A DNA stretch of 64,000 nucleotides from Stomorhina lunata (taxonomy: Eukaryota > Arthropoda > Insecta > Diptera > Rhiniidae): contig OW121740.1 of the NCBI GenBank assembly GCA_933228675.1, positions 157,221,191 through 157,285,190 of the forward strand, given 5' to 3'. This document shows positions 12,504 through 47,244 of the stretch, in pieces. Position 1 is the stretch's first letter, and each line of letters begins with the position of its first letter. The notes under the pieces are model-generated. The model was not told the origin of the DNA and searched no databases. It was given only the letters and a program-made list of their open reading frames with translations. Position numbers and translations under genes: made by a program.

Positions 12504-12545
12504 CCTGGGACACTCCTGATGTACTCCTTTTTAAATCGAGTTATT

Positions 12546-15045: not shown

Positions 15046-15405
15046 TCAGTTTCAGTCTCTTCCATTGTTTATTTTCTGTCAAAGAACAATTTTTTGATGT
15101 TTAAATTACAAGAGATGGCTGATACTTTTAAGTTTAAATATATTTTCCTTCACTGGGACTACACACACCCACAGTTGATGGAAGAAAAAAATACTAGACC
15201 ACTCCACTTCGACTGTCTTGAAACGTCGACTGCCAAAATATGCAGGCAGTCAAAGAGTTTTCTAAAAGAACAAATTTAAATAGTTTTCGAATCGTTACAA
15301 AACATCTGTCCTTATGGTGGAGATGAAGACAAAGAAGAGTCAAGTGGAGGAGAGTATATTTGTTCAATTGATGTTGAGGATTTATTTGAAAATGGAAATA
15401 TTTAA
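15046..15405 (+). pseudogene. Unrecognised broken reading frame
   Basis: One frame is open for 77 codons (15046-15276, with ATG codons at 15094 and 15112), hits TAA at 15277-15279 and stays open in the same frame for 41 more codons to TAA at 15403-15405. The second part is acidic and protein-like (CPYGGDEDKEESSGGEY, then SIDVEDLFENGNI); the first includes HWDYTHPQLMEEKNTRP. GC content is higher than in the flanks. I recognise no family. It may be a decayed gene or transposon fragment, a readthrough frame, or chance. Finding the two parts in one frame is the only real argument for coding origin. Confidence 0.25.
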
Positions 15406-16352: not shown

Positions 16353-16509
16353 TTCTATAGAAAATTTGACGATAGGCAAACATTTCTATATCAAAAAGTT
16401 GACGATAGGCAAACATTTCTATAGAAAAGTTGACGATAGGCAAACATTTCTATAGAAAAGTTGACGGTAGGCAAACATTTCTATAGAAAAGTTGACGGTA
16501 GGCAAACAT
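16353..16509 (-). repeat. Family C block, reverse orientation (left bracket of D array)
   Basis: Five units read TTTCTATAGAAAAGTTGACG and ATAGGCAAACA, the reverse complement of family C. The block abuts the family D array without a spacer. A matching block in the same orientation closes that array at 18869. Confidence 0.92.
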
Positions 16510-24442: not shown

Positions 24443-26322
24443 GAGGAAATCGAAAATTGGTTATTTTTAGGAAATTTGTCGAAAATTGACTATTAATAGG
24501 AAATTTTTCGAAAAATGACTATTTATAGGAAATTTTTCGAAAATTTACTATTTACAGGAAATTTTTCGAAAATTGACTATTTATAGAAAATTTTTCGAAA
24601 ATTGACTATTTATAGAAAATTTTTCCAAAATTGACTATAGGAAATTTTTCGAAAATTCACTATTTATAGAAAATTTTTCGAAAATTGACTATTTATAGGA
24701 AATTTTTCGAAAATTGACTATTTATAGGAAATTTTTCGAAAATTGACTATTTATAGGAAATTTTTCGAAAATTGACTATTTATAGGAAATTTTTCGAAAA
24801 TTGACCATAGGAAATTTTTCGAAAATTGACTATTTATAGGAAATTTTTCGAAAATTGACTATTTATAAAAAACTTTTCGAATATTGACCATAGGAAATTT
24901 TTCGAAAATTCACTATTTATAGAAAATTTTTCGAAAATTCACTATTTATAGAAAATTTTTCGAAAATTGACTATTTATAGAAAATTTTCGAAAATTGACT
25001 ATTTATAGGAAATTTTTCAAAAATTGACTATTTATAGGAAATTTTTCGAAAATTGACTATGTATAGAAAATTTTTTGAAAATTGACTATTTATAGGAAAT
25101 TTTTCGAAAATTTACCATTTATAGGAAATTTTTCGAAAATTGACTATTTATAGGAAATTTTTGGAAAATTGACTATTTATAGGAAATTTTTCGAAAATTG
25201 ACTATTTATAGGAAATTTTTCGAAAATTGACTATTTATAGGAAATTTTTCGAAAATTGACTATTTATAGGAAATTTTTCGAAAATTGACTATTTATAGGA
25301 AAATTTTCGAAAATTGACTATTTATAGGAAATTTTTCGAAAATTGACTATTTATAGAAAATTTTTCGGAAATTGACTATTTATAGAAAATTTTTCGGAAA
25401 TTGACTATTTATAGGAAATTTTTCGAAAATTCACTATTTATAGAAAATTTTTCGAAAATTGACTATTTATAGGAAATTTTTTGAAAATTGACTATTTGTA
25501 GGAAATTTTCGAAAATTGACTATTTATATCAAATTTTTCGAAAATTCACTATTTATAGAAAATTTTTCGAAAATTGACTATTTATAGGAAATTTTTCGAA
25601 AATTTACCATTTATGGGAAATTTTTCGAAAATTGACTATTTATTGGAAATTTTTCGAAAATTTACTATTTATAGAAAATTTTTTCGAAAATTGACTATTT
25701 ATAGGAAATTTTTCGAAAATTGACTTTTTATAGGAAATTTTGCGAAAATTGACTATTTATAGGAAATTTTTCGAAAATTGACTATTTATAGGAAATTTTT
25801 CGAAAATTTACCATTTATAGGAAATTTTTCGATTATTTACTATTTATAGAAAATATTTCAAAAATTGACTATTTATGGGAAATTTTTCGAAAATTGACTA
25901 TTTGAAGGAAATTTTTCAAAAATTGACTATTTATAGGAAATTTTTCGAAAATTGACTATTTATAGGAAATTGTTCGAAAATTGACTTATTAAAGGAAATT
26001 GTTCGAAAATTGACTTATTAAAGGAAATTTTTCGAAAATTGACTATTTATAGGAAATTTTTCGAAAATCGACTATTTATAGGAAATTTTTCGAAAATTGA
26101 CTATTTATGGGAAATTTTTGGAAAATTTACTATTTATAGGAAATTTTTCGAAAATTTTCTACTTATAAAAGGTTTTTCTAAAATTTACTTTTTAAGGGAA
26201 ATTTAATATTTATAGGAAAATTTTCAGAAATTGAATATTTTTAGAAAATTTTTCAAAAATTTTCTATTCGAAGAAAATTTTTCAAAAATTTTCTTTTTAA
26301 AGGAAATTTTTCAAAAATTGAC
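24443..26322 (+). repeat. Family D tandem array, 29-bp unit
   Basis: About 64 units of GGAAATTTTTCGAAAATTGA plus CTATTTATA. The array is more homogeneous than 16510-18868. Shortened units (GACTATAGGAAA, GACCATAGGAAA) recur near 24635, 24805 and 24888, suggesting small block duplications of about 85-170 bp. The right end decays into TTTTCTATTCGAAG units. A pure T run of about 20 follows at 26333-26352. Unlike the other D arrays, no C block flanks it. Confidence 0.95.
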
Positions 26323-26352
26323 TAGGAGCTTTCTTTTTTTTTTTTTTTTTGA

Positions 26353-27334
26353 TAAACGACATAAAAATCCTACTAAAACCCCGAATTTATCTTAATCAAC
26401 CATAAAATACTTTGTTGGGATTTTCTTCAAAAATAGAAACAGGAAACCAAGAAAATGCATTTCACACCGCAAGATTTCCTTAGATTTAACTAAAAGAAAA
26501 TTTAATGTTTGTCACATTAACATTTCACACAATTTACAATAACATTTATTCCATTTATGTCTTCCTATTTTCATCTTTTAGTTCGGATGCATAAAACATG
26601 CATTCAATTTGGTAACAAAACTCTTTTATATAAAATCAGGTAAGACTTTTTGTTGCATAAATGTGCTGAAAGACAGACATATTTTTCTCACGTATTTACT
26701 CATGTGTGTGTTTCTACGAAACGAAACAAAAAAACATAACCGTAACTATGTGACAATATTCCATTATGTCACAAAAAAAGTAAACACATTTTATATGGGA
26801 AAACATTACGTGGCAGTTTTCCATAGTCACTTTTTTATACTTTATACGACAAGATTGCATTTCCGTTTAAGGTTAATACAAATTTTTCCTTCGTCAGGCT
26901 TTTAAGACTTTTCCATATGAAAGAATGTATGTGTTTGTGTGAGAGAATTAAACTGCCTATTGTATGACAATGTAATGCATTTTTACACTCAAGAAAAAAA
27001 TCTATGAAATCTCTTAACATATATCTCAACATTAAAAATATATAAAATGATTTGTATTTTTTTGTTCTATACCTTTTTTTAGTATATTCTTAAAGTTTTG
27101 CGAATTGTACTAGTCTTAATATACGACATGCATGTGCATGACGAGCATGTTCAGGTAACACGTAAATCTATTTATATGAGTGTATTACAAAATAAAATCC
27201 TATTTTGTTCAGGTTTTTTATTTTTTGTCGCTCTTTATTTAACACTATTAAATATTGTTCGCAAATATTGTTTTAATGTTGGTATTTTCCATTGCAAGGA
27301 TATGACTAGACTATATAAAGAGACTATACTGTAA
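26353..27334. other. AT-rich single-copy DNA
   Basis: Nothing recognisable is seen. The frames at 26609-26905 (plus), 26835-27032 (minus) and 27098-27334 (plus) overlap or lack any domain. The last runs into the start of the 14-bp array. Confidence 0.55.
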
Positions 27335-29772
27335 CGATAAGACTAGTAGGTGTAGATTATGCTGACAAGGATATGACGACTAGAATATGACTACCAGAGT
27401 ATGACAACCAGCATATGACTACTGGAATATAAAGATCAGATTATGACTACTAGAATATGACTACTAGAATATGAGGACCAATATATGATAACTAGAATAT
27501 AAGGAACAGAATCTGACTACCAGCATATGACTACTAGAATATGAAGACCAGAATATAACTACCTGAATATGTCTTCTAGAATATGAAGACCAGAATATGA
27601 CCAGCAGGATATGAAGGCCAGAATATGACCACTGGAACATGAAGACCAGATTATGACTACTAGAATAAGAGGATCAGAATATGACTACTGGAATAGGAAG
27701 ACCAGAGTATGACTATTAGAACAACAAGACCAGAATATGACTACTAAAATATGAAGACCAGAATATGAATACTAGAATATGACTACCAGAATATGACTAC
27801 TGGAGTACGACGACCAGAATATGACTACTAGAATATGAGGACCATAACGTGACTACTAAAATATGAAGACCAGAATATGAATACTAGAATTTGATTACCA
27901 TAATGTGACTAGTAGTCATATTCTGGTAATCAAAACCAGAATATGAATATTAGAATCTGAAAGCCATAATATGACAAGCGGAATATGACTACTGGAGTAT
28001 GATGACCAAAATATGACTAGTAGAATATGAGGACCAGAATGTGACTAAGAGAATATGACTACTAGTATATGACTACTAGAGTATGAAGGCCAGAATATGA
28101 CTACTGGAATATGAAGATTAGAATATGGCTACCAGAATATGACTAGTACAAATGAGGACCAAAATATAACTACTAGAATACGAGAACCAGAATATGGCTA
28201 CCAGTATATGACTACTAGAGTATGAAGACCAGAATATAACTACCAGAATATGGCACTAGAATATGAAGAACAGAATATGACTACTAGAATATGCTGGCTA
28301 AAATATGACTGCTGGAATAAGAAGACCAGATTATGACTACTAGTATTTAAGGACCAGAATATGTCTACTATGAAGACCAGAATATGACTACTAGAATATG
28401 ACGACCAGAATGTGACTACTGAAGATCAGATATGACTTCTAGAATATGAGGACCAGAATATGACTACCAGAATTTGACTACTGGAGTAAGAAGACCAGAA
28501 TATGAGGACCGGAATATGAGAATCAGAATATGAAGACCAGAATATGACTACCAGGATATGACTTCTAGAATATGAGAATCAGAATATGAATACCAGGATA
28601 TGGCTACCAAAATACGATTACTAGAATATGACTAACAAAATATAAAGACTGGAGTATAAAGACCAGATTATGAGGACCAGAATGTGACTACTAAGATATG
28701 AAGACCAGAATATGACTACTAGAATATTAGGGTATGAAGACTAGAATGTGACTACTAAAATGTGAAGACCAGAATATGTGGACCAGAATATGAATACCAG
28801 ATTATGACTATTAAAATATGACAACTAGATTATGAATACCAAAATATGAAGACTGGAGTATGAAAACCAGAATATGACTACCAGAATATGAGGACGAGAA
28901 TATGATTGCCAGAATATGAGGACCAGAATGTGACTACTAAAATATGAAGACCAGAATATGGCTACCAAAATATGACTACTAGATTATGAACACCAAAATA
29001 TGAAGACTGGAGTCTGAAGACCAGAATATGACTACTAGAATATGAGGACCAGAATGTGACTACTGAAATATGAAGACCAGAATATGACTACTAGAATATG
29101 AGGACCAGAATATGAATACCAGGATTTGGCTACCAAAATATGGCTAATAGAATATGACTACCAAAATAAGAAGACTGGAGTATGAAGACCAGAATATGGC
29201 TACTAGAATAGGACCAGAATATGATTGCCAGAATAGGGGGACCAGAACGTGACTATTAAAATATGAAGACCAAAATATGACTACTAGAATATGAATACCA
29301 AAATAGGAAGACTGGAGTATAAAGACCAGAATATGATTACTAGAATATGAGGACCAGGATATGACTAGTAGAATATGAAATTCAGAATATGAGGACCAGA
29401 ATATGACTACTAGAATATGAGGACCAGAATATGAGGACCAGAATATGAAGACTGGAGTATAAAGATCAGAATATGATTACTAGAATATAAGGGCCAGGAT
29501 ATGACTAGTAGAATATGACATTCAGAATATGAGGACCAGAATATGACTACTAGAATATGAGGACCAGAATATCACTACTGGAATATGATGACTAGAATAT
29601 GACTACCAGAATATAACGACCAGAATATGAGCACTTGTATGTAATGACCAGAATATGACCACTAGATTCTAAGGAGCAGGATATGACTTCTAGAATACAA
29701 TGACCAGAATATAACGACTACAATTGGACGACCAGAATATCACGGTCAGAATATGGCGACTAGAAAACGACT
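27335..29772 (+). repeat. S14 tandem array, 14-bp unit
   Basis: About 170 units with consensus AGAATATGANNACY. Two main versions alternate, AGAATATGACTACT and AGAATATGAGGACC, so the effective higher-order unit is often 28 bp. Units with GACTGGAGTATGAAGACC recur about 28630-29470, marking larger duplications. Family S14 lacks the A/T-tract architecture of A to E and is not related to them by eye. Confidence 0.95.
27893..27931. repeat. 39-bp near-perfect palindrome inside the S14 array
   Basis: GATTACCATAATGTGACTA is followed by its imperfect reverse complement TAGTCATATTCTGGTAATC (shared centre G). This is the only clear place in the array where the 14-bp units run backwards, a local inversion of two or three units. 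Confidence 0.8.
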
Positions 29773-30623
29773 TCAGTAGTTTTTTTTTTTTATATTATTT
29801 TTCATTTAAACAAACCATATGCCAGTTTATAGACTACAAATTTAATTATGAGTTTTTTCTGTATTTTATTTGCAAATATTGTTTATTGCACATTTCAGTT
29901 TTTAATTAAAAAAATTCTTTTTAATATTTTTAAAAGAAAATATATGGACACATATTGATAATTTGTTTTTATATTGTCTTAAAATAAATTAAAAAATAAT
30001 ATTCGTTCTTTTATATACATACATACATATTTTTCCATAAAATTCATTTTCATTTCATCGCAAATTGTTTGTTATTATTAAATTGACAATTCAAGAAGCC
30101 ACAAAAACTAATTTCATATTTGGTTACTTGTGTTTCTTTTTTTAAAATTTATTTTTGTTTTATTATTGTTTAAAATTAAAGAGAAAAGAAAATCCTATTT
30201 CTAAATCCCAGAAAAAAAAATCTAAAAAAAATAAAACTTTCTTTTCGTTGACAAAAGAAAAATTTGCAATCTTGTACTTTATCAACGACACTTTGATAAA
30301 CAACAAAACCAACAAGAACAATAAGAGAAACAAACTAAAGAAATAAAATAAAAAGTTGCCTAAAAGTATACTTTTTAATTTAAAAATCCTGCAATAAGTT
30401 TATGTCATTCTCTGTGTGTCGAAAAATCCCTTTACTCCTTCTCCCCCTGTCTCCACTCTGTCTCTAAAAAGATAATGTCAAGTGTTTCGGGTAGTCTTAT
30501 GTTAGAAAATAGGAAAATAAATACATAAATAGAAAACGAGATGAATATACATGGACACAGATGTGTGTGTTTGAATGAATAGCTGTTATTTATTAGACGA
30601 AATACCGTTGTACAGTGGGATAT
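29773..30623. other. AT-rich single-copy DNA with a pyrimidine tract
   Basis: No gene is seen. At about 30428-30470 a tract of nearly pure C/T (CCCTTTACTCCTTCTCCCCC, then TGTCTCCACTCTGTCTCT) stands out from the AT background. On the minus strand it offers GAGA-type motifs and could form triplex DNA. ATACATACATACAT repeats lie near 30015. Confidence 0.5.
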
Positions 30624-32600
30624 TAATATAAAAACTGGAATATGACGTTTAGAAAAATTATGATTAATTGGACGACATAAATATGATGACTAAAATGCGA
30701 CTACTAGAATATGACTGCAGTAATATGAAGTAATGACTACCAGAATATAACGACTAGAGTAGGATGACTCAAATAAGATAACATGGAGATGACTACAAAA
30801 CTATGGCTAGTGACTACCAGAATATGTCTGTTAGAATGTGACTACCGTAATATGACTGTATTTGCTGACTAAAGCATGACTATCGGAATATCGCTATTGT
30901 AATATAAAGACTAAAAATTACTACCAAAATTTGACGATGCCAATATAGCTACTAAAGTAAGATAAATATGACTACTAAAATGACTAGAATATAAGTACCA
31001 GGATATGGTGACTAGAATATGACGACTATAATATGACTACAAGAATATGACAACTAGCGTAGGACTACTAGAATATGAATACAGGAATATGATGATTAAA
31101 ATATGACTAGGAGGATATGATGACTAGAATATGGCTACCAGAATATGACTACCAGAACAAGAAAACCGGAATATGGAGATGAGATGAGATGACTAGAATA
31201 TGACGACTAGAATATGGCATCCAGAATATGAATACCGGAATATGATGACTAGAATATGACTACCAGAATATGACAACTAGAATAGGACTACTAGAATATG
31301 AATACAGGAATATGATGATTAGAATATGACTAGGAGGATATGATGACTAGAATATTACTACAAGAATATGACTACCAGAATAAGAAAACCGGAATATGAT
31401 GACTAGAATGTGACAACCAGGATGAGATGACTAGAATATGACTTTCAGAATATGACGACTAGAATATGACTACCAGAATATGAATACCAGAATATGATGA
31501 CTAGAATATGAGTACCAGGATATGATTACTAGAATATGACTGCTAGAATAAGACGACTAGAATATGACTACCAAAATATGAATACCGGATGTGATGACTA
31601 GAATATGACTACCAGGATGAGATGACTAGAATATGACTATCAGAATAAGACGACAAGAATATGACTACCAAAATATGAATACCGGAATATGATGACTAGA
31701 ATATGAGTATCAGAATATTACTACTAAAATATGACTACAAGAATGTGAATACCGGAATATGATGACTAGAATATGACTACCAGGATTTGATGACTAGAAT
31801 ATGTCGACAAGAATATGGCTACCAGAATATAAGTACCGGAATATGATGGCTAGAGTATTAATATTAGGAGAAGATGATTCGAATATGAGTACCAGAATAT
31901 GACGACTAGAAAATGACTTCCAGAATATGAATATCGGAATATGATGACTAGAATATGACTACCAGAATATGATGACTAGAATATGAATATCAGGATATGA
32001 TGACTCGAATATGATTACCAGAATATGAATACCGGAATATGATGACTAGAATGTGACTACCAGATTATGAATGCCGGAATATGATGGCTAGAATAGGACT
32101 ATCAGGATATGATGACTTGAGTATGGCTGCCAGAATATGACTGCCAGAATATTTCTACCAAAATATGACTACCAGAATATAAATGCCGGAATATGATGAC
32201 AAGAATAGGATTAGGATATTATGAATTGAGTATGACTGCCAGAATATGACGACTAGAATATGACTACCAAAATATGAATACCGGAATATGATGACTAGAA
32301 TATGAGTATTAGAATATGACTACTAAAATATGACTACAAGAATATGAATACCGAAATATAATGACTAGCATATGACTACCGCGATTTGATAACTAGAATA
32401 TGACGACAAGAATATGGCTACCAGAATATGAGTACCGGAATATGATGACTAGAATATGAATGCCAGGATATGATGACTCGAATATAGTACGAAGAATAGA
32501 ATATAACGACTAGAATGTGATGATAAGAATATGACTACTAAAAAACGGCTAACATAATACGACTACTAGAAAATTACTATTAGATATGAGTACTAGAATA
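30624..32600 (+). repeat. S14 tandem array with 42-bp higher-order unit
   Basis: About 140 units of 14 bp. From about 31200 the dominant order is AGAATATGACTACC, AGAATATGAATACC, GGAATATGATGACT, a three-unit (42-bp) higher-order repeat that does not occur at 27.3-29.8 kb. The left 500 bp are strongly diverged and out of register. Confidence 0.93.
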
Positions 32601-33969
32601 TGATGACTAGACTTTGATGTGCCGTCTATATTATACTTCTTTTGTCATTGATTCCCAGATGACTGCCACAAATATGATAATGTATGACGGCTTGAATATG
32701 ACTACTAGTTTATAAAGACTTGTGTAAGTATGACTACTTAAGTATGTATTATGTTCACATTTTTCTTCTATTGTACCCACTGTGCTACAATAAAGTGACA
32801 TAAATAGCAATAACAATATTTTATATAGACAATATTTAGTAAAAATACTCAACATATTTTCCTCCTCAGCTCTTTTGCTCGGTCTTATCTAAATAAACAA
32901 AAACATACATACAAATGTTTACACTCTATAAGTTACAATAACTTTACGTGTTTTAAATGCAAACGTTTTCGTTTCAAAGGATGGAATGGGAAAATTTTTC
33001 GTATAAAAAATTGCTGGTATTAAAGCAATAACAATATCATTGTCATTGACTTACAGTATAAAAACTGTTATACATATACATACTTACATATACGTATATG
33101 TTCTAGTATGTCTGTACATCTGAGTTTGTGTTCATATGAACAATTTTGCATTCTTCATCAATGCAGGCGCTTGCTTTTGCACTTATCGTCTACAATAGGA
33201 GCAAATTTATGAAAATCGTTTTATCCTGTCGAGGCAAAATGAAATTCATGTTTTCGCATCTGTGATTATACTTTATATTCCCAAAGCTACTTTTCTAATG
33301 AAAATCACCGAAATCGTTAACAGAACATATTCATTTCAGCAAACGAATACGTAGTTTACAAAGTCTGCCACTGTGCTTTGTTTATTTTTAATTACAAAAT
33401 TTTGTGAATAAGCAATTCCTATTAAAATTGATAATAAAACTGATTTATAATATAAATTCTTTATTAGATAATAAAGATTGTCACAATTAAGAATTAAGCT
33501 GATAATTCTAATTAAATATGTTGTAAACTTTTATATACCAAAACTTTATGTTTAACTAGACGTGTTTAAATCTACTTGATTATGATTATATTTCTTATAT
33601 CTTTTATTTATAACATTTTTATGTTTAATCTTATGACACTAAAATTACTATTAATCATGTCTTTAAATTTCATGTATTCTTATGTTTCTTTGGAAATTGT
33701 CTTTATATCACCTCATGCAAAGGCTGAAAGATTTTTATGTGTCATCTTTAGCTAAGACCTTCATATTTTGCGTTTTAACATTGGGATAATTCTCTAGTAT
33801 TTTTAAAATTTATAAGCCTATTTGCATTGAAAATTGACGACGTCATTAGAATTATTAATAAATTAATGTTGAGAGTTGCTATTAATGCGTATATGTTATA
33901 AACAACAATATCTTGTAAATAAACATTTTATACATATATGTATACTATACTTAGAGTATATCGTAGGTT
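32601..33969. other. AT-rich single-copy DNA between S14 arrays
   Basis: No gene is called. Scattered S14 remnants persist to about 32740. At 33162 CATCAATGCAG resembles a 3' splice site and is followed by an open stretch (ALAFALIVYNRSKFMKIV) with a stop after about 32 codons. Chance is the likelier explanation. ATACATACATATAC repeats occur at about 33072-33098. Confidence 0.5.
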
Positions 33970-34620
33970 TAAAATGACTAGCAAAATATGACTACCAGAA
34001 TATGATAATCAGAATATGACGACTTAAATACGTCGACTATTGTACGATGAATAGAATATGACGACTTTAAAATGACTACTGGAATATAATGATCAGAATA
34101 TGAAAACAAGAATATGACGACTAGAATATGACTACCAGAATATGAATACTAAAATATATGAGGACCACAATATTATGATTAGAATATCGAAATCAGAATA
34201 TGACTATAGTAATATGACGACTAAAATATGATAATCAGAAATTATCGACTTGATATAGCGACTACAGTACTATGATGACTAGAAAATGGCTACCAGAATA
34301 AGACAACTAGAATATGATGACTAGAAAATGAAAAAAAAAAAAAAATATATGAAGATCTTAATAAGACTACCAGAATATGACTATCGTAATATGAGAATTT
34401 GTTGACTTGAATATACTCGTAGCAACTACAGTACTATGATGACTAGCAAATGACTACCAGAATATGATAACAAGAATAAGAATAAAAAAATATAGCCACC
34501 AGAATATGACTATCGTAATCTGATGACTTAAGGCCCTCAGCCCTATTGAGAGTCAATGATAACAGAATATTAAGACTAGAATATGATGAATATAAAATAA
34601 CTACAAAATACGATGACCTC
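33970..34620 (+). repeat. S14 array, diverged
   Basis: About 45 degenerate AGAATATGACNACT units with many insertions, including a poly-A run at 34330-34345. It is the most decayed of the three S14 arrays and passes directly into a short family E block. Confidence 0.88.
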
Positions 34621-34712
34621 AATATTTTTCTAGAAAATTTTTGATAAAAAATTTTTTTATAAAAAAATTTTTGATGTACAATTTTTTTATAGAAAATTTT
34701 CTATCAAAAAAT
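34621..34712. repeat. Short family E block, left of the ribozyme relic
   Basis: Three degenerate units (TTTTTCTAGAAAATTTTTGA, TTTTTTTATAGAAAATTTTC) of the same kind as the E array at 34946. The ~230-bp unrelated segment between the two blocks therefore looks like an insertion into one array. Confidence 0.8.
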
Positions 34713-34945
34713 AACAAAATAGTCGGGATGTAAATATTATTCAAAAAGAAGTGCATTTGCATTTGATCCCAAACCTGTTACATTTATTTATTAATGTAAC
34801 AGATCAATTTATTGATAAAAAGCCAAAAAATGTTTGCGGAGAAACCAAATTCCTCGACGCGTTTCGATGGTTGGTTAAGCCATCTCTTCAGGAGGATTAT
34901 CCCCAATTTAGACAGATCGAAAACCTCGCATTATTAAAGTAAAGT
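34713..34945 (-). mobile_element. Probable Penelope-like element relic (ribozyme-bearing)
   Basis: A GC-richer segment of about 230 bp interrupts a family E array. On the minus strand it carries a full hammerhead motif (34851-34896), and downstream of it a hairpin with arms CTGTTACATT and AATGTAACAG (34775-34784 and 34793-34802, plus-strand coordinates). Type I hammerheads with a minimal helix III are characteristic of the terminal repeats of Penelope-like retroelements. No reverse transcriptase or GIY-YIG frame is present, so this would be a solo terminal piece or a non-autonomous retrozyme-like derivative. The identity is inferred only from the ribozyme and the GC contrast. Confidence 0.5.
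34851..34896 (-). ncRNA. Type I hammerhead ribozyme motif
   Basis: Read on the minus strand: helix I TCCTC (34896-34892) pairs with GAGGA (34855-34851). The core CTGAAGA (34891-34885) fits CUGANGA. Helix II is GATGG and CCATC, 5 bp with a 9-nt loop, and starts with the expected G10.1-C11.1 pair. GAA (34865-34863) is G12-A13-A14. A15.1 pairs with T16.1 within ACGCGT, and C17 is at 34856. Cleavage would fall between 34856 and 34855. Every conserved core base is present. Helix III is only A-T and C-G closing a GC loop. Such minimal helices are known from Penelope-like elements, where the self-complementary ACGCGT lets two copies pair and cleave as a dimer. Activity itself is untested. Confidence 0.75.
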
Positions 34946-35625
34946 TTTGATATAAAGTTTTTTTATTAGAAAAATTTTTAGTATAAAATTTTTTGTTTTA
35001 GAAATTTATAAAAAATTTTAATATAAATTTTTCTTATAGAAAATTTCCAATAGAAAATTTTTGATTTCAAATTTTTTTGTAGAAAAATTTTTGATATAAA
35101 ATTTTTTTTATAGAAAAGTTTTTTATATACATTTTTTTTATTGAAAAACTTTTGATATACAATTTTATTATTAAAAATTTTGATAGACAATTTTCAATAT
35201 AAAATTTTTTAAAGAAATATTTTCGATATAAAATTTTTTATATAAAATTTTTTTATGGAAAATTTTGTATAAAAAATATTTGATATTCACTTTTTTTATT
35301 GTAAATTTTCTATTTAAAATTTGTTATAGAAAATTTTTTGATATAAATTTTATTCCGACAAAGTTTTCTGAAAAATTTGTGATAAAAAATTTTTTCTAGA
35401 AAATTTTCGATACAATTTTTTTTGTAGAAAAAAAATTTGATATACATTTTTTATAGAAAAATTTCGATATAAATTTTTTTGTAGAAAAATTTGTGATATA
35501 TAAATTTTTCTAGATAAATTTGTGATATACAAATTTTTCTAGAAAAATTTTTCAAAAAATTTTCGATATAAAATTGTTTTATGGAAAAAATTTCGTTATA
35601 AAATTTTGTATAAAAAAATTATGTG
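34946..35625. repeat. Family E array (short, diverged)
   Basis: About 22 units near 30 bp built from TTTTTTTATAGAAAAATTTT and GATATAAAA. Units vary strongly in length, including TTTTTCTAGA and TTTTTTGTAGA forms. It ends against the inverted-repeat element at 35654. Confidence 0.9.
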
Positions 35626-35653
35626 TGTGAAGTTAAATTTGAAATTTAAAAAC

Positions 35654-35739
35654 CTAGACACAAACTAATGTTTTTAACAGAGCTCTGTTATGTAGTTAAC
35701 ATAGCTCTGTTAAGAATCAAAAATAAAGGGAATACACAA
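35654..35739 (+). mobile_element. Left end of the CTAGACACAAAC element
   Basis: The end starts CTAGACACAAACT at 35654, followed by the perfect 16-bp palindrome TAACAGAGCTCTGTTA (35675-35690) and a second, imperfect TTAACATAGCTCTGTTA, then AATCAAAAATAAAGGGAATA. It is collinear with 8860-8950. The matching right end is missing; after the 169-bp array the sequence passes into family E units. Confidence 0.75.
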
Positions 35740-36620
35740 GGAATTCGAATTACCAGTGAACCAGGCAACTTGGGCGGACAAATGGGGCATCAGATTGTAG
35801 GAGAGGATGTTGGAAACAAGGCAACGTGGGGGGATAAATGAGTTATCGGGGAGTAGCTGAGGATGTTTTCTATAGGGCTCCATTGTCGGAATATCTAACA
35901 GAGCGAGTTGGTAGGAGTTATTGAGATTTTTGAAAAATTTCATATGTGGGACTATGTTAAGGGAGAATTCCAGATTCCATGGAAACAAGGCAACGTGGGG
36001 GGACAAATGACGTATCGGGGATAGCTGATGATGTTTTCTATAGGGTTCCATTGTCAGAATATCTAACAGAGCGATTTGGTAGGAGTTATTGAGAATTTTC
36101 AAAAATTTCATATGTGGGACTATGTTAAGGGAGGATTCCAGATTCCTTGGAAACAAGGCAACGTGGGGGGGCAATTGAGGTATCGGGGAGTAGCTGAGGA
36201 TGTTTTCTATAGGTCTCCATTGTCAGAATATCGAACAGAGCGAGTTGGTAGGAGTTATTGAGATTTTTCAAAAATTTCATATGTGGGACTATGTTAAGGG
36301 AGGATTCCAGATTCCTTGGAAACAATGCAACGTGGGGGGACAAATGAGGTATCGGGGAGTAGCTGAGGATGTTTTCTATAGGGCTCCATTGTCAGAATAT
36401 CTAACAGAGCGAGTTGGTAGGAGTTATTGAGATTTTTGAAAAATTTCACATGTGGGACTATGTTAAGGGAGGATTCCAGATTCCATTGAAACAAGGCAAC
36501 GTGGGCGGACAAATGAGGTATCGGGGAGTAGCTGAGGATGTTTTCTATAGGGTTCCATTGTCAGAATATCTAATAGAGCGAGTTGGTAGGAGTTATTGAA
36601 ATGTTTCAAAAATTTCATAT
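35740..36620 (+). repeat. S169 satellite array inside the element
   Basis: About five head-to-tail units. TAACAGAGCG/TAATAGAGCG markers stand at 35896, 36064, 36402 and 36571 (GAACAGAGCG at 36233), spaced 168 or 169 bp. Each unit contains GTGGGACTATGTTAAGGGAG, GATTCCAGATTCC, CAACGTGGGGGGACAAATGA, GGTATCGGGGAGTAGCTGA and GATGTTTTCTATAGGG. It is far GC-richer than its surroundings. The open frames on both strands follow the repeat. Two diverged units of the same kind form the middle of the intact element at 8860-9301. Confidence 0.93.
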
Positions 36621-36925
36621 AAAATTTTTTATAGAAAAATTGTCGATATAAAATTTTTTATTCTTAAATTTTTGATATCAAATTTTTTATTTTAAAATTT
36701 TTGATATAAACATTTTTTTATGGAAAATTTTCGATATTAATTTTTTTTATTGAAAATTTTCTATTTTAAATTATTGATAGAAAAATTTCGTATAAATTTT
36801 TTTTATCGAAAAATTTTCTATACAAAATTTTTTTATAGAAAAATCCTTGATATAAACTTTTTTTTATAAAATATTTCTGATATAATTTGTTTAAAAAATT
36901 CTCGATTTTATACAGAAACATTTTG
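36615..36925. repeat. Family E array, short
   Basis: About ten diverged units (TTTTTTATAGAAAAATTGTC, GATATAAAAT) begin directly after the last S169 unit, with no right element end between. The E arrays on both sides suggest that the element landed in an E array, or that the junction was remade by recombination. Confidence 0.87.
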
Positions 36926-38755
36926 TAAAGAAAATTTGGGCAGTTGGATGGATTTGCCTCTTGTTGTACCAAAAAATATGATTTGAACAACACTTTGCCT
37001 TTTTTTCGAGTCAGAAATATGTAGGCAGTCTTTGCTGTCTCAAATCTATATTTGTGAGCACTCCGTGATATAAATTTCTGTGTTTATACTGTCAAATGCC
37101 AGGAGATATATGTAAAGCATTATATTATTCAAGTTGCGCCATTTGTTGTTATATAGACTCATTGCTTAAGCTTGTTCATCTACAGCCAATTTTATTTGTT
37201 TTACATCGACAGCGTGTTATTGCTAAAGGTTCACCGCTGATGAAGGGAGGAGCATTAGCTTATAAGCAGGATTTCTGCGGAAAGTATTAGTTGTTCTTCG
37301 GAAGACGCTGTTAACTCTGTCCTTATGATGTTGAGCCTTAAATTTATGTTCTTGTTTCGAAATACATTTAGTTACTTGGCAGAGTTTTCAAATTTTAGTG
37401 ACACCAAAAGGTGTTTTGTTTCACACAAAAAAAAATAAATCGGATTTGCTTAGGTAGGACATCGCTAGGTATCTACTCATGTCGGATGACACCAATTTTG
37501 CTATACTACGTCTCTTTGTGATATAAAGGTACCGAACCTCCTGATATGAAGTCTTGGTTATAGCGACTATATTGATTTAGATTTATATAGATTCAGTTTC
37601 GAATAATAGTTTAGAATTTTAGTTCAGAGATATAGATTTGAATTCTAGTTTTGAGAATTATTATCAGTGTGTAGTCCAAGTATAAAACACATCAATACTG
37701 ATTACTAAGAAATTTATGAAACAGTTAATAGTTGCAATATTTTCTATTCAAAGGGAAATTGAAGGCGTCACTGCGCTTCACAATTTGATACTCTTAGCGA
37801 CAATTCAAGGCTGCTGTCGTTCAGAAAAAAACCTCATGTGTGGGCGCTTTGGTTTGTTGATTCACATATTGATATTTGAAATTTATTGTCTTTAGTTTTG
37901 AATAAACAAAAGGAATCTTGATTGATGCTTTTAAATAAACAAAGACTAGCAAGAATAACAGAAAACATACTTACACACATACACACACTCTTATTTATGT
38001 ATTTGCAGATATACGAGCATTCGGTTGTTTGTGGTTTATGGTAAAACAAATAGCTTCAGTATAAAGCAAAACACTCAGACCTCGAAATATGTAAACCTGC
38101 GAGAATAGTGCAAGGTCGATCCCAGTTGTACATACAAGAGTTAAATTATTCAAAAGAATTAACAAAGGCTCACTACTTTGTTTTCTAGTTGCCTTTAAAG
38201 GATCTTGATAAAACTTTAACGTCTACATATTTTCCCGATAAAAGATTCTGATAGAAAGTAAATTAATGGTACACTTTTTCGCAGCTCTGTCTGTCATCAA
38301 ATGTATGAGTATGTCTTAACATTTGTTGGCATATTTTCAACGTTAAGTGTGTGTCAGTGTTGTTGTAGTTTATTGTTTTTTTGGGGTTTTCTTTTTTTTT
38401 TTTTGCTCTTAATAGTTTTGTTGTTATTCTCGTAGATTTAGACAACAATTTTCTTTGTTTTAACGTGTAGATGAGGATAGGAAAATGTATCTGTTTCTTT
38501 GTATATGTGTCAGTTTGTTTAACATGAATTTACATGTTACAAATACAAGAATGAGTTACCATTTTCATTTAAGAAAATTTCATTGTTTTTCTTTTCAATT
38601 GGTCTATGACTATGTAAAGTATTTGTTGCTATATCTTGAAATATCTAAGTACTCTTATCAAGTCTTTAATATAAGGATAATAACAATAATGTAAATAACA
38701 ATAACATTAGTAACAAAAGACAGTGGGGAAAAACTAGAACAGAACAAGACTAGAA
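36926..38755. other. Single-copy DNA of mixed composition
   Basis: No gene can be named. Two short unrecognised open frames look less biased than most: 37096-37290 (CKALYYSSCAICCYIDSLLK...) and 37716-37895, which starts MKQLIVAIFSIQREIEGVTA and includes QGCCRSEKNLMCGRFG. Neither has a domain or a good start context. CACACATACACACAC lies at about 37973-37988, and a run of about 15 T at 38391-38405. Confidence 0.4.
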
Positions 38756-41700
38756 AAATTGTTAATATAAAGTTCTAAAAAATAAATTTCGATATAAAAT
38801 TTTTTTATAGAAAAATTTTCGATATAAAATTTTTTTTATAGAAAAATTTTCGATATAAAATTTTTTTATAGAAAAATTTTCGATATAAAATTTTTTTATA
38901 GAAAAATTTTTATAATAAAATTTTTTTATAGACAAATTTTCGATATAAAATTTTTTTATAGAAAAAATTTCGATAACAATTTTTTTATACAAAAAATTTA
39001 TAAAAAATTTTCGATATATTAGGGTCAAAATTTTTGATATCGATTTTCTTTATCGAAAACTTTGAATTAAAGATTTCAAAAAAAAATCAATATACATTTT
39101 TTTTGTAGAAAAATTTTCGATATGAAATTTTTTATAGAAAAATTTTCGAAATAATTTTTTTTTAAGAAAAATTTTCGAAATAATTTTTTTTTAAGAAAAA
39201 TTTTTGAAATAAAATTTTTTAAAAAATTTTTGATATAAAATTTTTTTAAAGAAAAATTTTCGATATAAAATTTTTTATAGAAAAATATAAATACAACATT
39301 TTTTATCGAAAAATTTTAGATATAATATTTTTTACAAAAAATTTTCATATAAATTTTTTTTATAGAAAAATTTTTTATAAAAAAATATTTACCGAAAATT
39401 TTTTTTATACAAAAATTTTCGAAATAAAATTTTTTTTATAGAAAAATTTTCGAAATAAAATTTTTTTTATAGAAAAATTTTCTATATAAAATTTTTTATA
39501 GACAAATTTTCGATAAATAATTTTTTTTATAGAAAAATTTTCGAAATAAAATTTTTTTATAGAAACAATTTCGATATAAATTTTTTTTTCGGTAAAACAT
39601 TCGATATAGAATTTTTTGTAGTGAACAATTTTTGATATCAATTTTCTTTATCGAAACTAGAATAGAAAAACTTTCGATGTAAAGTTTTTTATAGAAAAAT
39701 TTTTCATAAAAATTATTTAATTTAAAAATTTTTGATATAAAATTTTTTTGCAGAAAATTTTCGATATTAAATTTTTTATAGAAAAATTTTCGATATTAAA
39801 TTTTTTATAGAAAAATATTTGACATAAAATTTTTTTTAGAAAAATTTTCGATATAAAATTTTTTTATAATTTTTTTTAAAGAAAAGTTTTCGATATAAAA
39901 TTTTTTAAAGAAAAATTTTCGATTAAAAATTTTTTTTATTGCAAAATTTTTGATTTAAAATTTTTCATTGAAAAATTTTTGATAACAAATTTTTTTATAG
40001 AAAAATTTTCGATATGAAATTTTTTAAAGAAAAATTTTCGTTATAATATTTTTTTATAAAAAAGATATAAAATTTGTTTATAGAAAAATTATCGATATAA
40101 AATTTTTTTGTCGAAAAATTTTCGATATAAAATTTTGTTATAGAAAAGTTTTCTATATAAAATTTTTATAGAAAAATTTTCGATACAAAATTTTTTTATA
40201 GAAAAATTTTAGATATAAAATCTTTTATAGAAAATTTTCAAATAGGAAATTTTTTTTATAGAAAAATTTTTGATACAAATTTTTTACAGACAAATTTTGA
40301 ATATAATATTTTTTATAGGAAATTTTTCGATATAAATTTGTTTATAGAAAAATTGTCGATTTAATTTTTTTTATAGAAAAATTTTCGATATATAGAAAAA
40401 TGTTTGATAAAAATTTTAGATATAAAGTTTTGTTATAGAAGAATTTTCAATATAAAATTTTTCATAGAAAAATTATCGATATAACATTTTTTATAGAAAA
40501 ATTTTCGATGTAAAATTTTTTTATAGAAAATTTTTTGATATAAATTTTTTTATAGAAAAATTTTCGATGTATAGAAAAATGTTTGTTAAACATTTTAGAT
40601 ATACAATTTTGTTATAGAAAAATTTTCAATATAAAATTTTTTTATAGAAAAATTATCGATATAACATTTTTGTTTAAAAAAAGTTTCAATATAAAACATT
40701 TTAAAGAAAAATTTTAGATATAAAATTTTTTAAAGAAAAATTTTCGATATACAATTTTTTTATAGAAAAGTTTTCGATATAAATTTTTTTTATAAAAAAG
40801 TTTTCGATATAACATTTTTTATAGAAAATTTTTCGATAACAAATTTGTTTATAGAAAAATTTTCGATAAAAATTTTTTTTTATAGAAAAATTTTCGATAT
40901 AAAATTTTTATAGAAAAATTTTGGATATAAAATTTTTTATAGAAAAATTTTGGATAAAAAATTTTTTATAGAAAAATTTTGGATATAAAATTTAATTTTT
41001 AAAGAAAAATTTTCAACATAAAATGTTTTTAAGAAAAATTGTTGATTTAAAATTTTTTTATTGAAAAATTTTTGGTATCAATTTTTTTTTTTGGAAAAAT
41101 TTTAGATATACAATTTTTTATAGAAAAATTTTCGATAAAAAATTTTTATAATTCTTTTTTTATAGAAAAATTTTCGATATAAAATTTTTGATATTAAATT
41201 TTTTTTTCTGGAAAAATTTTCGGTATAAAGTTTTTTATATAAAAAATTTTTTATATACAATTTTTTTATAGAAAAATTTTCGATATAAATTTTTTTATAG
41301 AAAAATTTTCGATATAAAATTTTTTTTTTTAAAAAAATTTTCGATAAAAAATTTTTACAATAATTTTTCGGTACAAAATTTTTTTATAGAAAAATTTTGG
41401 ATATAAAATTTTTGATAAAAAATTTTTTATAGAAAAATTTTCGATATAAAATTTTTTTATAGAAAATTTTATATCTAAAATTTTTCTATAAAAAAGTTTT
41501 TAATCAAAAAGTTTTTTATAGAAAAATTTTAGATATAAAATTTTTTTAAAGAAAAATTGTCAATATTAAATGTTTTTAAGAAAATTTGTTGATTTAATTT
41601 TTTTTATTGAAAAATTTTTGTTATCAATTTTTTTTATAGAAAAATTTTCAATAAAAAAATCTTTATAAATTTTTTTTTTATAAAAAATTTTCGGTACAAA

Positions 41701-42722
41701 ATTTTTTAACAAAAAAATTTTCGATACAAAATTTTTGGTAAAAAATTTTCTATAAAATTTTTGATATTAAATTTTTTTTATGGAAAAATTTTCGATATAA
41801 AGTTTTTTATATAAAGTTTTTTATATAAAATTTTTTCATAAAAAAATTTTCGATAAAAAATTTTTACAAAAATTTTTCGGTACAAAATTTTTTTATAGAA
41901 CAATTTTGGATATAAAATTTTTGATAAAAAATTTTTTATAGAAAAATTTTCGATATAAAATTTTTTTTATAGAAAAGTTTTCGATATAATTTTTTTTTTT
42001 TATAGAAAAATTTTCGATATAAAATTTTTCTATAAAAAATTTTATATCTAAAATTTTTCTATAAAAAAAGTTTTTAATCAAAAAGTCTTTTATAGAAAAA
42101 TTTTAGATATAAAATTTTTTTAAAGAAAATTGTCAATATTAAATGTTTTTAAGAAAAATTGTTGATTTAATTTTTTTTATTGAAAAATTTTTGTTATCAA
42201 TTTTTTTTTATAGAAAAATTTTCAATATAAAATTTTTTATAGAAAAATTTTCAATAAAAAATTTTTATAATTTTTTTTTTTTTATAAAAAATTTTCGGTA
42301 GAAAATTTTTATAACAAACTTTTGGTACAAAATTTTTTAACAAAAAAATTTTCGATAAAAAAAATTTTTGATAAAAAATTTTTTATAGAAAAATTTTCAA
42401 AATAAAATTTTTTTATAGACAAATTTTCGATATTAATTTTTTATAGGAAAATTTGTTTATAGAAAAATTTTCGATATACAATTTTATAAAAAAAAATTCA
42501 ATATAAAATTTTTTTGTAGAAAAACTTTCGATATAAAATTTTTTTAAAGAAAAATTTTCGATTTAAATCTTTTTTATAGGAATATTTCGATATATAATTT
42601 TTATCAAAAAATTTTTATTATAAAATTTTTATAGAAAAATTTTCAATAAAAAGTTTTTATAAAAAATTTTCGGTACAAATTTTTTTATAGAAAAATTTTC
42701 GATATAAAATTTTAAAAGAAAT
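38756..42722. repeat. Family E tandem array (large), 30-31-bp unit
   Basis: About 130 units of GAAAAATTTTCGATATAAAA plus TTTTTTTATA. GAAAAATTTTC is the dyad core. Units are heterogeneous and vary in T-run length. AAATGTTTTTAAG marks a higher-order repeat at 41021, 41568 and 42141 (spacings 547 and 573 bp). A smaller duplication of about 179 bp is marked by TATAGAAAAATGTTTG at 40391 and 40570. Minus-strand open frames (38762-39028, 39405-39641, 41893-42081) give Lys/Ile/Phe/Tyr/Asn periodic peptides that simply follow the repeat. Confidence 0.95.
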
Positions 42723-43896
42723 TTTAATACATTTGCCCCACTGTGTCATATGTATACAAATCTGCCATTGTTTAAAGAGATTGTTGTTGTTTTTACAATT
42801 TGCTTGTTAAGTTTTAGCTTTAAATGTTGTAGTTGTTGTTATTTTAGCCATATTTAAACATCAATTCGTTTATTATTGACTGGCTTGTAAACAATTACCT
42901 TAATGGACTTGGGGTGATTACAGTGATTATTTTCTATGCTCGTACTCATAGAAAGAGGAGGTCGTAGGAATGAAGTATATTTGAATGTAGACTTTAGCGT
43001 TATTATCTGCTTAACTTGTTCTATAGATTTTGGGTTTTAAACGACTCATATTACAAGTTAATTGAATATTCCACTTATGCTCTATTTCTATATGTCAATT
43101 GTGCGACAATATTTGTCTCGTCTGCCAGTCTGTGAGGGAGTGTGGACTTGTGGCAAATATTTGTTTTTATTTTTGCTTTCTTTTGCTTTTCTAATGATAT
43201 TTAAAATTAGATTAACTATTTTTAAGAACGTTTTGGATGACAAAGATAAATAAATGCTAAATGATGATATTTTTCGAGGACATTTGGTTTTTGTTTTCAA
43301 GTGATTTTGGGGTGAATGACAAGGTTAATTAATTGTTTGTTTTATAGAGATTATAATTTAGTGATAAATATTAAGATTAGATGATAATTAATATAATAAG
43401 GATTAGTCAATGACATACTTGAAAGTGTGGGTATTAATAATCTTATGTTTGGGTTGATAACAATAATTTATTTAATGTCATAGAGACATATCTCTTAGAG
43501 ATCAAAAGATAAGGGAGGATTAAGTTAAGTTTTCTTTCATTAAAATCATATGTTTGTTATAAATTTATAACATGGTTTTTTAGAATTATTTATCTTATAT
43601 TTTAACTATGTATATGATTTATTTAGTTCTATATAAAATTACATTTTATTTTGTTTCATCACATCATATTTTTCTACTTGTTTCTTTCAGATCATTTCAC
43701 CTCATTTTTTTTAAATGAAAATTTAACATTAATCCATTAATGGCTGGGATTTTTTAATACAAAATATAAAAACCGTAAGTTCAAATTTTTATTCAAAATC
43801 AATTAATTTTATGTGATATAATAACACTCCAAGGCGTATACTTGATCGTAACATAACAAATAATAATCATACGTTCAGTATAAATTCAAATGATTT
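42723..43896. other. AT-rich single-copy DNA
   Basis: No gene or element is recognised. Two opposed frames overlap at 43062-43253 (plus) and 43088-43300 (minus) without domains. The right part is plain AT-rich DNA to the start of the next array. Confidence 0.55.
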
Positions 43897-45040
43897 TTGT
43901 TTTTCTATAGAACATTTTTCGGTCAAAAAATTTTTCTATAGAAAATTTTTTCTTAATAATCTTTTCGGTATAATTTTTTCTCCAAAAATTTTGTGGTAAC
44001 AAACATTTTTCTTTAGATTTTTTTTCTCTAGAAAATTTTTCGGTAACAAAAATTTTTCTTTAGAAATTATTAGGTCAAAAAAATGTTTCTATCGAAAATT
44101 TTTCGATCAAAAAAATTTTTCGATAACAGCAATTTTTGTATAGAAAATTTTTCATTAACAAAAATTTTTCTATCGAAAATTGTTCGGTAACAAAAATTTC
44201 TCTATAGAAAATTTTTCAGTAACAAAAATTTGTCAGTAACAAAAATTTTTCCATAGAATAATTTTCATTAACAAAAATTTTTCGGTAACAAAAATTTTTC
44301 TATAGAAAATTTTTGGGTATAAAAAATTTTTCAGTCAAAAAATTGTTCTATTGAAAATTTTTCGGTCAAAAAAATTTTTCTATAGAAAATTTTTCGGTCA
44401 AAAAAATTTTTCTATAGAAAATTTTTCGGTCAAAAAAATTTTTCTATAGAAAATTTTTCGGTCAAAAAAAATTTTCTATAGAAAATTTTTCGGACAAAAA
44501 AATTTTTCTATAGAAAACTTTTCGGTCAAAAAAATTTTTCTATAGAAAATTTTTCGGTCAAAAAAATTTTTTTATAGAAAATTTTTCGGTCAAAAAAATT
44601 TTTCTATAGAAAATTTTTCGGTCAAAAAAATTTTTCTATAGAAAATTTTTCGGTCAAAAAAATTTTTCTATAGAAAATTTTGCGGTCAAAAAATTTTTCT
44701 ATAGAAAATTTTGCGGTCAAAAAAATTTTTCTATAGAAAATTTTGCGGTCAAAAAAATTTTTCTATAGAAAATTTTTCGGTCAAAAAAATTTTTCTATAG
44801 AAAATTTTGCGGTCAAAAAATTTTTCTATAGAAAATTTTGCGGTCAAAAAAATTTTTCTATAGAAAATTTTGCGGTCAAAAAAATTTTTCTATAGAAAAT
44901 TTTTCGGTCAAAAAAATTTTTCTATAGAAAATTTTTCGGTCAAAAAAATTTTTCTATAGAAAAATTTTCGGTCAAAAAAATTTTTCTATAAATAATTTTT
45001 CGGTCAAAAAAATTTTTCTATAAATAAATTTTCGGTCAAA
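43897..45040 (+). repeat. Family A' tandem array, 32-bp unit
   Basis: About 35 units of GAAAATTTTTCGGTCAAAAA plus AATTTTTCTATA. It differs from family A at 1-1567 mainly in GGTCAAAAAAA in place of GGTATCAAAAA. The left edge (43897-44330) is diverged, with GGTAACAAAAA units that bridge the two types, and 44370-44980 is homogeneous. A block of GCGGTC units (about 44690-44880) contains an internal duplication. Confidence 0.95.
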
Positions 45041-45772
45041 AAATTTTTGATATAAAAAAAATTTCTACAGAAAAATTTTGTAGAGACAAAATTTTTATAT
45101 CAATTGTTCTCTAGAAAATTTTTTGATATCAAAAATTTTTCTCTAGAAAATTTTTGATATCAAAAATTTTTCTCTAGAAAATTTTTGATATCAAAAATTT
45201 TTCTCTAGAAAATTTTTGATATCAAAAATTTTTCTGTAGAAAATTTTTGATATCAAAAATTTTTCTGTAGAAAATTTTTGATATCAAAAATTTTTTTCTA
45301 GAAAATTTTTTGATATCAAAAATTTTTCTCTAGAAAATTTTTTGATATCAAAAATTTTTCTCTAGAAAATTTTTTGATATCAAAAATTTTTCTCTGGAAA
45401 ATTTTTTAAAATCAAAAATTTTTCTCTAGAAAATTTTTTAAAATCAAAAATTTTTCTCTAGAAAATTTTTTGATATCAAAAATTTTTCTCTAGAAAATTT
45501 TTTGATATCAAAAATTTTTCTCTAGAAAATTTTTTGATATCAAAAATTTTTCTGTAGAAAATTTTTTGATATCAAAAATTTTTCTCTAGAAAATTTTTTG
45601 CTATTAAACATTTTTTATTAAACATATTTTTCTAGATTTTTTTTTTTGCTATCAAATATACAAAATATATAGAAAATTTTTTGATATCAAAACTTTTTCA
45701 AAAATTGTTCTCTAGAAAATTTTTAGATATCAAAAATTTCTCTTTAGAAAACTTTTTTCTTTAGAAAACTTT
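45041..45772 (+). repeat. Family A'' tandem array, TCTCTAGA variant
   Basis: About 20 units of GATATCAAAAATTTTTC plus TCTAGAAAATTTTTT (31-32 bp). The CTATAG centre of A' has become CTCTAGA, and GATATC replaces GGTC. It is fused directly to the A' array, so one continuous array has two homogenised sub-blocks. Confidence 0.94.
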
Positions 45773-47244
45773 TTGATTTGCAATTATATGCAGTTAGTTA
45801 ATATATCATTCGAAAGCTAAGACTTTAGTCTTTATTTTGATACAATTATGGTCTTGTTTATTTTCATTCCTAAAAGTTATATCCCTAGTAAACTGAAATT
45901 AAATTATATTTTTCGCAAAATGTAAGTAAAAGCGAACAAAATTTAGGTTATATTATGTGTTAGAGTTTTTTACCATAAATTTTACAAGATAACAATAAAA
46001 AAGGGATATTGCTTTTAAGTCTGAACTAAAATAAATACTGACCTCTGTTATAATAAGTTTAAACGGTTTTGAAATTTACAAAACTGTATGAAATTTTGAG
46101 ATACACCTTTTTTCAATACATTTTTTTTCTACAACAAATTTAGCTTTGAAAAAGCCAATCATTGATTATATAATTAGTGTTTTTAAAAGTTTACAATTCT
46201 TTTGTTTAAATATTTTTTGCATTTGATTTTTATTTGGTTAATTTCCAAAATAGTTGTGGTTTAAAGTTTTGTATTACATGTTTTACTCTTATTTGTTGTG
46301 CATTCAAATTTTTTCCAAATGTGGTTTTGTTCTGCAAAAAATTAGTATCTCAAAAAAATTAATGCTGCATAAATAAATGAATATTGTGTACTTACATACA
46401 ATATTTGTTTAAGTTCCAAAAAAATTGAACTATAAACTATTTAACTATTCAGAAATTCTGATGAAAAAGAAGGTTATTTAAATATTTAGTTATTTGTATT
46501 TGCTAAAAAAAATTAAACAAACAACCATTTTCATGAAAAAGGTTCTAACTGAAACTAATAACAAAATTGTAGTATTTACATTTAAATTATTGAAATATCT
46601 AAAAGTTTTAAAGCAAAAAAATGAATCAACGATTTACTCGTAGTTATAAAAAAATTGAATGCTACAAAAATAAACCACAATTCAATTACATAAAAACAAC
46701 TCAAAGTTAATTTTACTCTATTTTAAATAAAATTAAACTTTTTTATTTTCACGCTCTGCTTTTTTTTCCTCTTCCAACTTTGGGGTTTGTTTTCGTTTCG
46801 TTATTTTTTCATTTTCAAAATAAATGTTTATAAATTTGTTCTATTTGTTTTTATTTTAACAGTTTCTGTTTCTGTTATTTAAACCACTTTTAGCAATTTA
46901 TAAAATATGCTTTTTTGCTATTCGGTGTCAAAGTGTTTGTGTGTGTGTATGTGTTTTGGGTGCATCTGTATGAGTTTTGTTTCAAGAGCCCAAAACGGCA
47001 CATTGTTTTAATTTATTCAATTTGTATTGCAGATTTTTAGGGGTTATGTTACGTGCATTTGCCAAATAATTCCAAAACACAGCCACAAAAATATTAGTTT
47101 CTAAAGGCCGAAATCAACAACATTTGGATTTAATTTGAAATAATTTGAAACACAAATAACAAATTCAAGTGTAACGAAAATATAAATAAATTGTTTGGTT
47201 AGGGTGAGTTTTGTTTAAACAAAGCGAACTTTGTTTTCATTACT
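45773..47244. other. AT-rich single-copy DNA
   Basis: No recognisable gene is seen. A (GT)n tract lies at about 46932-46955. The rest is AT-rich with short homopolymers and no tandem structure. Confidence 0.6.

What the first reader, a model, noticed from the sequence alone, without database searches (positions are those of the whole stretch)
34851..34896. Complete hammerhead ribozyme on the minus strand
Seen: 5-bp helix I, CUGANGA core, 5-bp helix II with G10.1-C11.1, GAA, then A15.1-U16.1 and C17, all in order in 46 nt. The chance of all core bases plus two perfect helices occurring together is very low. Known: type I hammerheads with a 2-bp helix III are typical of Penelope-like retroelements and act best as dimers; ACGCGT here is self-complementary. 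Inference: a Penelope-like or retrozyme-like relic sits inside a fly minisatellite block, and its ribozyme looks undamaged.
Basis: partly seen in the sequence, partly recalled or inferred. Interest (0 to 1): 0.85.

Follow-up and report, generated by a model that had tools for sequence, protein, structure and literature searches.

The report
Small hammerhead ribozyme, Penelope-retrotransposon type
A short stretch of AT-rich repetitive DNA appears to hold a complete RNA-cutting motif of a kind known from Penelope-type jumping genes, probably the leftover of one such element.

Summary
Minus strand 34896-34851 reads helix I (5 bp), CUGAAGA, helix II (5 bp), GAA, ACGCGU, C17, helix I, with no core defect. 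Rfam Hammerhead_1 aligns end to end (23.1 bits, E 0.0005 on 71 bases), but below its gathering score of 34, and longer scans miss it. The pattern is rare, 1 in 3140 random windows, not vanishingly so. It sits in a GC-richer insert of about 190-220 bp (34713 or 34739 to 34930) that interrupts an AT minisatellite. An ATG lies in helix II, the predicted cut falls 28 nt after its A, and a perfect 10-bp hairpin follows at +82 to +109. This layout resembles an anole Penelope-like element (PMC11167929). Two copies pair best as a double hammerhead. Best reading: a short, 5'-truncated relic or non-autonomous derivative of a Penelope-like element. Against it: no second copy in the window, no reverse transcriptase in the stretches scanned, and an in-frame stop after two codons. 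The genome search did not complete, so copy number and membership are untested. Small Penelope-type hammerheads are published: a new member of a known kind.

The parts
34713..34930 (-). Inserted segment carrying the ribozyme, 218 bp (35% GC against 10-12% in the flanking array); the low-coordinate edge may instead be about 34739 (192 bp)
   Evidence: Array match ends at 34712 and resumes at 34931; joins at 34712/34931 and 34738/34931 tie at 306, against 308 for the flanks apart
34851..34896 (-). Complete type I hammerhead ribozyme motif, 46 nt
   Evidence: Rfam RF00163 positions 1-45/45, 23.1 bits
34892..34896 (-). Helix I, 5' arm UCCUC
34885..34891 (-). Core CUGAAGA
34880..34884 (-). Helix II 5' arm GAUGG; contains the start of the ATG at 34883-34881
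34866..34870 (-). Helix II 3' arm CCAUC
34863..34865 (-). Core GAA
34857..34862 (-). Minimal helix III: ACGCGU, self-complementary, A15.1-U16.1 closing pair
34855..34856 (-). Predicted cleavage site: after C17 (34856), before 34855
   Evidence: inferred from the hammerhead consensus; not tested
34851..34855 (-). Helix I, 3' arm GAGGA
34875..34883 (-). ATG GCT TAA: start-like codon in helix II followed by an in-frame stop at the third codon
34775..34802 (-). Perfect 10-bp hairpin CTGTTACATT / AATGTAACAG, at +82 to +109 from the ATG
   Evidence: (1 of 1000 shuffles has a stem as long)
34736..34744 (.). Possible left copy of a target-site duplication, 8 of 9 letters like 34930-34938; doubtful
   Evidence: 142 of 2000 random edge pairs do as well
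34621..34712 (.). AT minisatellite, left of the insert
34931..35563 (.). AT minisatellite (29-bp unit), right of the insert

Best explanation
This is a short, 5'-truncated relic (or a short non-autonomous derivative) of a Penelope-like retroelement that inserted into an AT-rich minisatellite. It kept the pseudo-LTR/ORF-start junction, where such elements carry a small type I hammerhead. In the parent element, transcripts of head-to-tail copies would hold two such motifs; their ACGCGU loops would pair into a 6-bp helix III, making a double hammerhead that cuts after C17 and trims the RNA template. Here one motif was found, so a cis dimer within this segment is not possible and any activity would be weak or would need a partner RNA. 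Shown: motif, GC-richer insert, hairpin, ATG position, calculated preference for the dimer fold. Inferred: parentage, truncation, cleavage.
For: Intact core and helices. Rfam Hammerhead_1 full-length match, below threshold. Minimal helix III and dimer fold: the cofolding minimum of two 46-mers is the double hammerhead, -27.3 against 2 x -9.8 kcal/mol. Insert in an AT array, joined flanks losing 2 points, as few as 49 of 750 arbitrary deletions in the array; AT-rich DNA is the target of the anole element. ATG in helix II with the predicted cut 28 nt after its A; in the anole element the ORF starts at stem II and the cut is 26 bp downstream. Hairpin at +82 to +109; the anole element starts reverse transcription in a stem-loop 111-118 bp into the ORF.
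Against: The frame from the ATG stops after two codons. No reverse transcriptase or GIY-YIG match in the stretches scanned. No second copy in the window. Target-site duplication doubtful. The edge is ambiguous (+171 or +145 from the ATG), and both lie beyond the 12-22 codons of ORF in a rotifer pLTR plus tail. The edges were chosen for the best join, so the 49 of 750 flatters. The similarity to Penelope-like elements is one of layout; no sequence was aligned. The 46-mer's own minimum adds two pairs between core and helix-III letters, and with flanks the hammerhead lies 1.8 and 3.9 kcal/mol above the minimum. The insert folds only slightly better than shuffles (z -1.42, 17 of 200).
Confidence: 0.6

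Rival explanations
1. A metazoan non-LTR retrozyme monomer: a non-autonomous element of about 220 bp that spreads as a small ribozyme-cut circular RNA.
For: Insert length of 192-218 bp is inside the published 170-400 nt range and near the 220-240 bp coral repeats, and GC is low (published values). A helix III of one pair with a palindromic tetraloop is described for an axolotl retrozyme ribozyme. No long coding frame.
Against: Such retrozymes occur as tandem repeats; one copy was found here. They are described as highly self-paired; this insert is only slightly more stable than shuffles. Loop I-loop II contacts were not tested. I know of no ATG in helix II as a retrozyme feature (recall).
Confidence: 0.2
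2. A chance match: ordinary insert or spacer DNA that happens to fit the hammerhead consensus.
For: Strict short-helix-III sites arose in 1 of 3140 random windows, so a large genome has a few. The Rfam score is below gathering.
Against: The one site in the window lies inside a separate GC-richer insert with a non-random hairpin downstream. 0 of 153 fetched stretches sharing the core letters also had both helices. The Penelope-like layout would be an extra coincidence.
Confidence: 0.12
3. A hammerhead taken over for a host role, such as processing a transcript of the minisatellite.
For: Intact core although the adjoining frame is broken.
Against: No Pfam domain in 26299-38791; transcription and conservation could not be examined.
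Confidence: 0.03

Closest known systems
Small type I hammerheads of Penelope-like elements (Cervera and de la Pena 2014; Lunse, Weinberg and Breaker 2017: papers not held, known here from reference lists and review passages)
   Same: Type I order, minimal helix III; the helix III loop is self-complementary, suited to dimers
   Different: Found here as a single copy without the element's ORF or a second pLTR; loop contacts not tested
Poseidon PAc of Anolis carolinensis (PMC11167929; main text section read)
   Same: ORF start or ATG in stem II, cut site about the same distance downstream, stem-loop around 100-120 nt into the ORF start, AT-rich target
   Different: PAc has an ORF with RT and GIY-YIG; here the frame stops after two codons. 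The PAc ribozyme cut only with protein present. No sequences aligned
Metazoan non-LTR retrozymes (PMC7229834; parts 1-3 of 6 read)
   Same: Type I hammerhead, size near 220 bp, low GC, no long frame
   Different: Not tandem, no strong overall fold
Aedes aegypti repeat-associated hammerheads (PMC3088659; passages)
   Same: Putative hammerhead in an interspersed repeat, possible dimer through loop III
   Different: Their loop III would give a 10-bp stem; here 6 bp. No sequence compared

Membership tests
Hammerhead ribozyme, type I | Core CUGANGA, GAA, H17 with three helices, helix I open | tested here: met
   helix III is minimal
Hammerhead ribozyme, type I | Covariance-model match (Rfam RF00163) | tested here: inconclusive
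   Full-length, 23.1 bits, E 0.0005 on 71 bases, below gathering 34; not listed
Hammerhead ribozyme, type I | Self-cleavage after C17 | not testable with these tools
   needs in vitro transcription
Penelope-like element | RT plus GIY-YIG ORF | tested here: not met
   Frame from the ATG stops after two codons. No RT or GIY-YIG by Pfam, six frames with stops read as X, in 5401-11402, 11501-16401, 26299-38791, 42701-47261, 51501-55402, 58401-59791; the rest of the window not scanned. So it is filed as a possible derivative, not as an element
Penelope-like element | Small hammerhead in a pseudo-LTR with the ORF start at stem II | tested here: inconclusive
   Layout fits, but no pLTR could be defined and no relative aligned
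Penelope-like element | Tandem or inverted pLTR copies | tested here: not met
   No second copy in the window
Penelope-like element | Insertion in AT-rich DNA | tested here: met
   Flanks 10-12% GC; weak, as the whole window is 22% GC
Metazoan non-LTR retrozyme | Tandem repeats of 150-450 bp with type I hammerhead | tested here: not met
   Size fits, tandem does not
Metazoan non-LTR retrozyme | Highly self-paired RNA, circular transcript | tested here: inconclusive
   z -1.42 for the 218-nt insert; circular RNA not testable

The most novel reading that the evidence does not exclude
A stand-alone mini-element made of little more than the Penelope-like pLTR/ORF junction (ribozyme plus the reverse-transcription-start hairpin) without a protein, mobilised in trans by an autonomous Penelope-like element. 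It would be a link between Penelope-like elements and retrozymes, in which only the RNA parts are kept.
Probability: 0.17. Interest if true: 0.55.

Novelty: new member of a known kind. Interest (0 to 1): 0.3.

Why it matters
Penelope-like elements are proposed as likely candidates to complete the movement of retrozymes, yet the role of their small hammerheads is called a mystery (PMC7761336, passages). If this insert has many copies that keep only ribozyme and hairpin, it would show which RNA parts suffice for mobilisation. If it is a lone relic, it is an ordinary truncated copy and matters little beyond annotation. It also gives one case where Rfam scans of longer stretches do not list a minimal hammerhead that a 71-base scan lists.

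Tried and rejected
Rfam scans of the whole window and of 701 bases did not list a hammerhead; a 71-base scan did, so I take the misses as threshold and filter effects (inference). A helix I extension (CUAAAU/AUUUGG across a 9-nt bulge) can be drawn, but forcing it leaves the fold 3.6 kcal/mol above the minimum; not claimed. Target-site duplication: the top-ranked direct repeats at the edges were two of 11 nt with 2 mismatches, away from the edges, and one of 9 nt with 1 mismatch, 34736/34930; 142 of 2000 random edge pairs do as well as the last, so it is not claimed. The left edge stays ambiguous, 34712 or 34738. In one search two Pfam hits, DUF1413 (26.1 bits, just over its cut-off of 25, E 9.9e-06) and YqgH (E 0.065), have no stretch passing on its own and lie, by my conversion, at about 12533-12598 (partly) and 13529-13582 in 31-bp minisatellite arrays; taken as artefacts. 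A literal search for the array sequence found 3 papers, none relevant by title. Paper searches listed no title on natural hammerheads of flies in the rows shown; PMC3088659, listed, does report mosquito ones. The two founding papers on Penelope hammerheads are not held.

Full report
What is there. The minus strand 34896-34851 reads TCCTC CTGAAGA GATGG CTTAACCAA CCATC GAA ACGCGT C GAGGA. Descriptors for a type I hammerhead find this site and no other on either strand of the window. Every core base that I recall as required is present; the predicted cut is after C17 at 34856. Rfam's Hammerhead_1 aligns over its whole length (1-45/45) when 71 bases are given: 23.1 bits, E 0.0005, gathering score 34. 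It is not listed when 701 bases (six other weak matches) or the whole window (zero matches at gathering) are given.

How unlikely. In first-order Markov sequences with the window's composition, strict sites (two 5-bp Watson-Crick helices, helix-III region up to 40 nt) came up in 1 of 400 windows and 4 of 3140; with a helix-III region of 4-8 nt, 1 of 3140. Loose sites (4-bp helices, G-U allowed) came up 20 times in 400. With the composition of the local segment, 0 strict and 3 loose in 150. The site is thus rare, but a genome of a billion bases would hold a few by chance; the surroundings decide.

Surroundings. The motif lies in a segment of 35% GC between AT minisatellite stretches of 10% and 12% GC. 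The array match ends at 34712 and resumes at 34931. The best joins of the two flanks score 306, against 308 for the flanks taken separately. In a control with arbitrary deletions inside the right-hand array, the median loss was 14, and 49 of 750 lost 2 or less; since I chose the best join, this is moderate evidence for a simple insertion in phase. The left edge is not settled: joins at 34712 and at 34738 tie, which makes the insert 218 or 192 bp. With the second edge a 9-nt direct repeat (8 of 9 letters, 34736 and 34930) could be a target-site duplication, but 142 of 2000 random edge pairs do as well.

Anatomy of the insert, read on the minus strand. There are 47 nt before an ATG at 34883-34881 that lies in helix II. 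The predicted cut falls after +28. A perfect 10-bp hairpin follows at +82 to +109 (34802-34775); 1 of 1000 shuffles of the insert has a stem as long. The insert ends at +171 or, with the other edge, +145. The frame from the ATG reads ATG GCT TAA, so it is closed after two codons. In the anole Penelope-like element PAc (PMC11167929; [quoted passage not shown] a 30-40 bp 'tail' lies between two start sites. The match of layout is close. It is not a sequence alignment, and a rotifer pLTR with its tail holds only 12-22 codons of the ORF (PMC3846280, passages), so the far end here is not a perfect fit.

How it would work. The helix III region is ACGCGU, which is self-complementary: a monomer can form one or two pairs, two copies a 6-bp helix. 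The cofolding minimum of two 46-mers is the double hammerhead, -27.3 kcal/mol, against -19.6 for two monomers at their minimum. The 46-mer alone folds with helices I and II, but its minimum adds two pairs between core and helix-III letters; with flanks the fold with both hammerhead helices lies 1.8 (70 nt) and 3.9 kcal/mol (86 nt) above the minimum. Reviews state that Penelope-like elements carry minimal type I hammerheads that may cleave as dimers and whose role is unknown (PMC7761336, passages; PMC6155905, passages). In PAc the ribozyme cut only with protein present, and ribozyme mutants still inserted in vitro. I infer that in the parent element tandem transcripts are trimmed this way. In this window one motif was found, and no near-copy of either half within 3 mismatches, so a cis dimer within this segment is not possible.

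What could not be shown. The whole-genome search did not complete (ten calls), so the number of copies, the parent element and the organism stay open. A BLAST of the segment against the window gave, besides itself and its own hairpin, only weak matches of E 0.12 or worse. Pfam gave no reverse transcriptase or GIY-YIG domain in six frames with stops read as X over the stretches named in the membership table; other stretches were not scanned.

Verdict. A real type I hammerhead motif, most likely a Penelope-like relic or short derivative (0.60), less likely a retrozyme monomer (0.2) or chance (0.12). The kind is published; by titles in reference lists the Penelope link dates from 2014 and the dimer cleavage from 2016-2017. 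It is a new member of a known kind, of modest interest unless genome copies show a protein-free mobile unit.

Noticed in passing
window 35810-36620: A 169-bp tandem repeat, 4.8 copies at 93% match, GC-richer (41% in 36001-36500) than the surrounding arrays. Five CTGANGA words on the plus strand are spaced at about its period, without hammerhead helices.
   Followed up: partly
window 1-64000: Much of the window is made of 29-32-bp and 14-bp AT-rich minisatellites; several consensus units hold TTCTATAGAA-like cores.
   Followed up: no
window 34511-34588, plus strand: A weak match to snoRNA SNORD87 (23.9 bits, gathering 50, E 0.039 on 701 bases), below threshold and probably chance.
   Followed up: no
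window 34840-34910: Rfam Hammerhead_1 is listed for a 71-base query but not for 701-base and 64-kb queries: scans of long stretches may under-report minimal hammerheads.
   Followed up: partly
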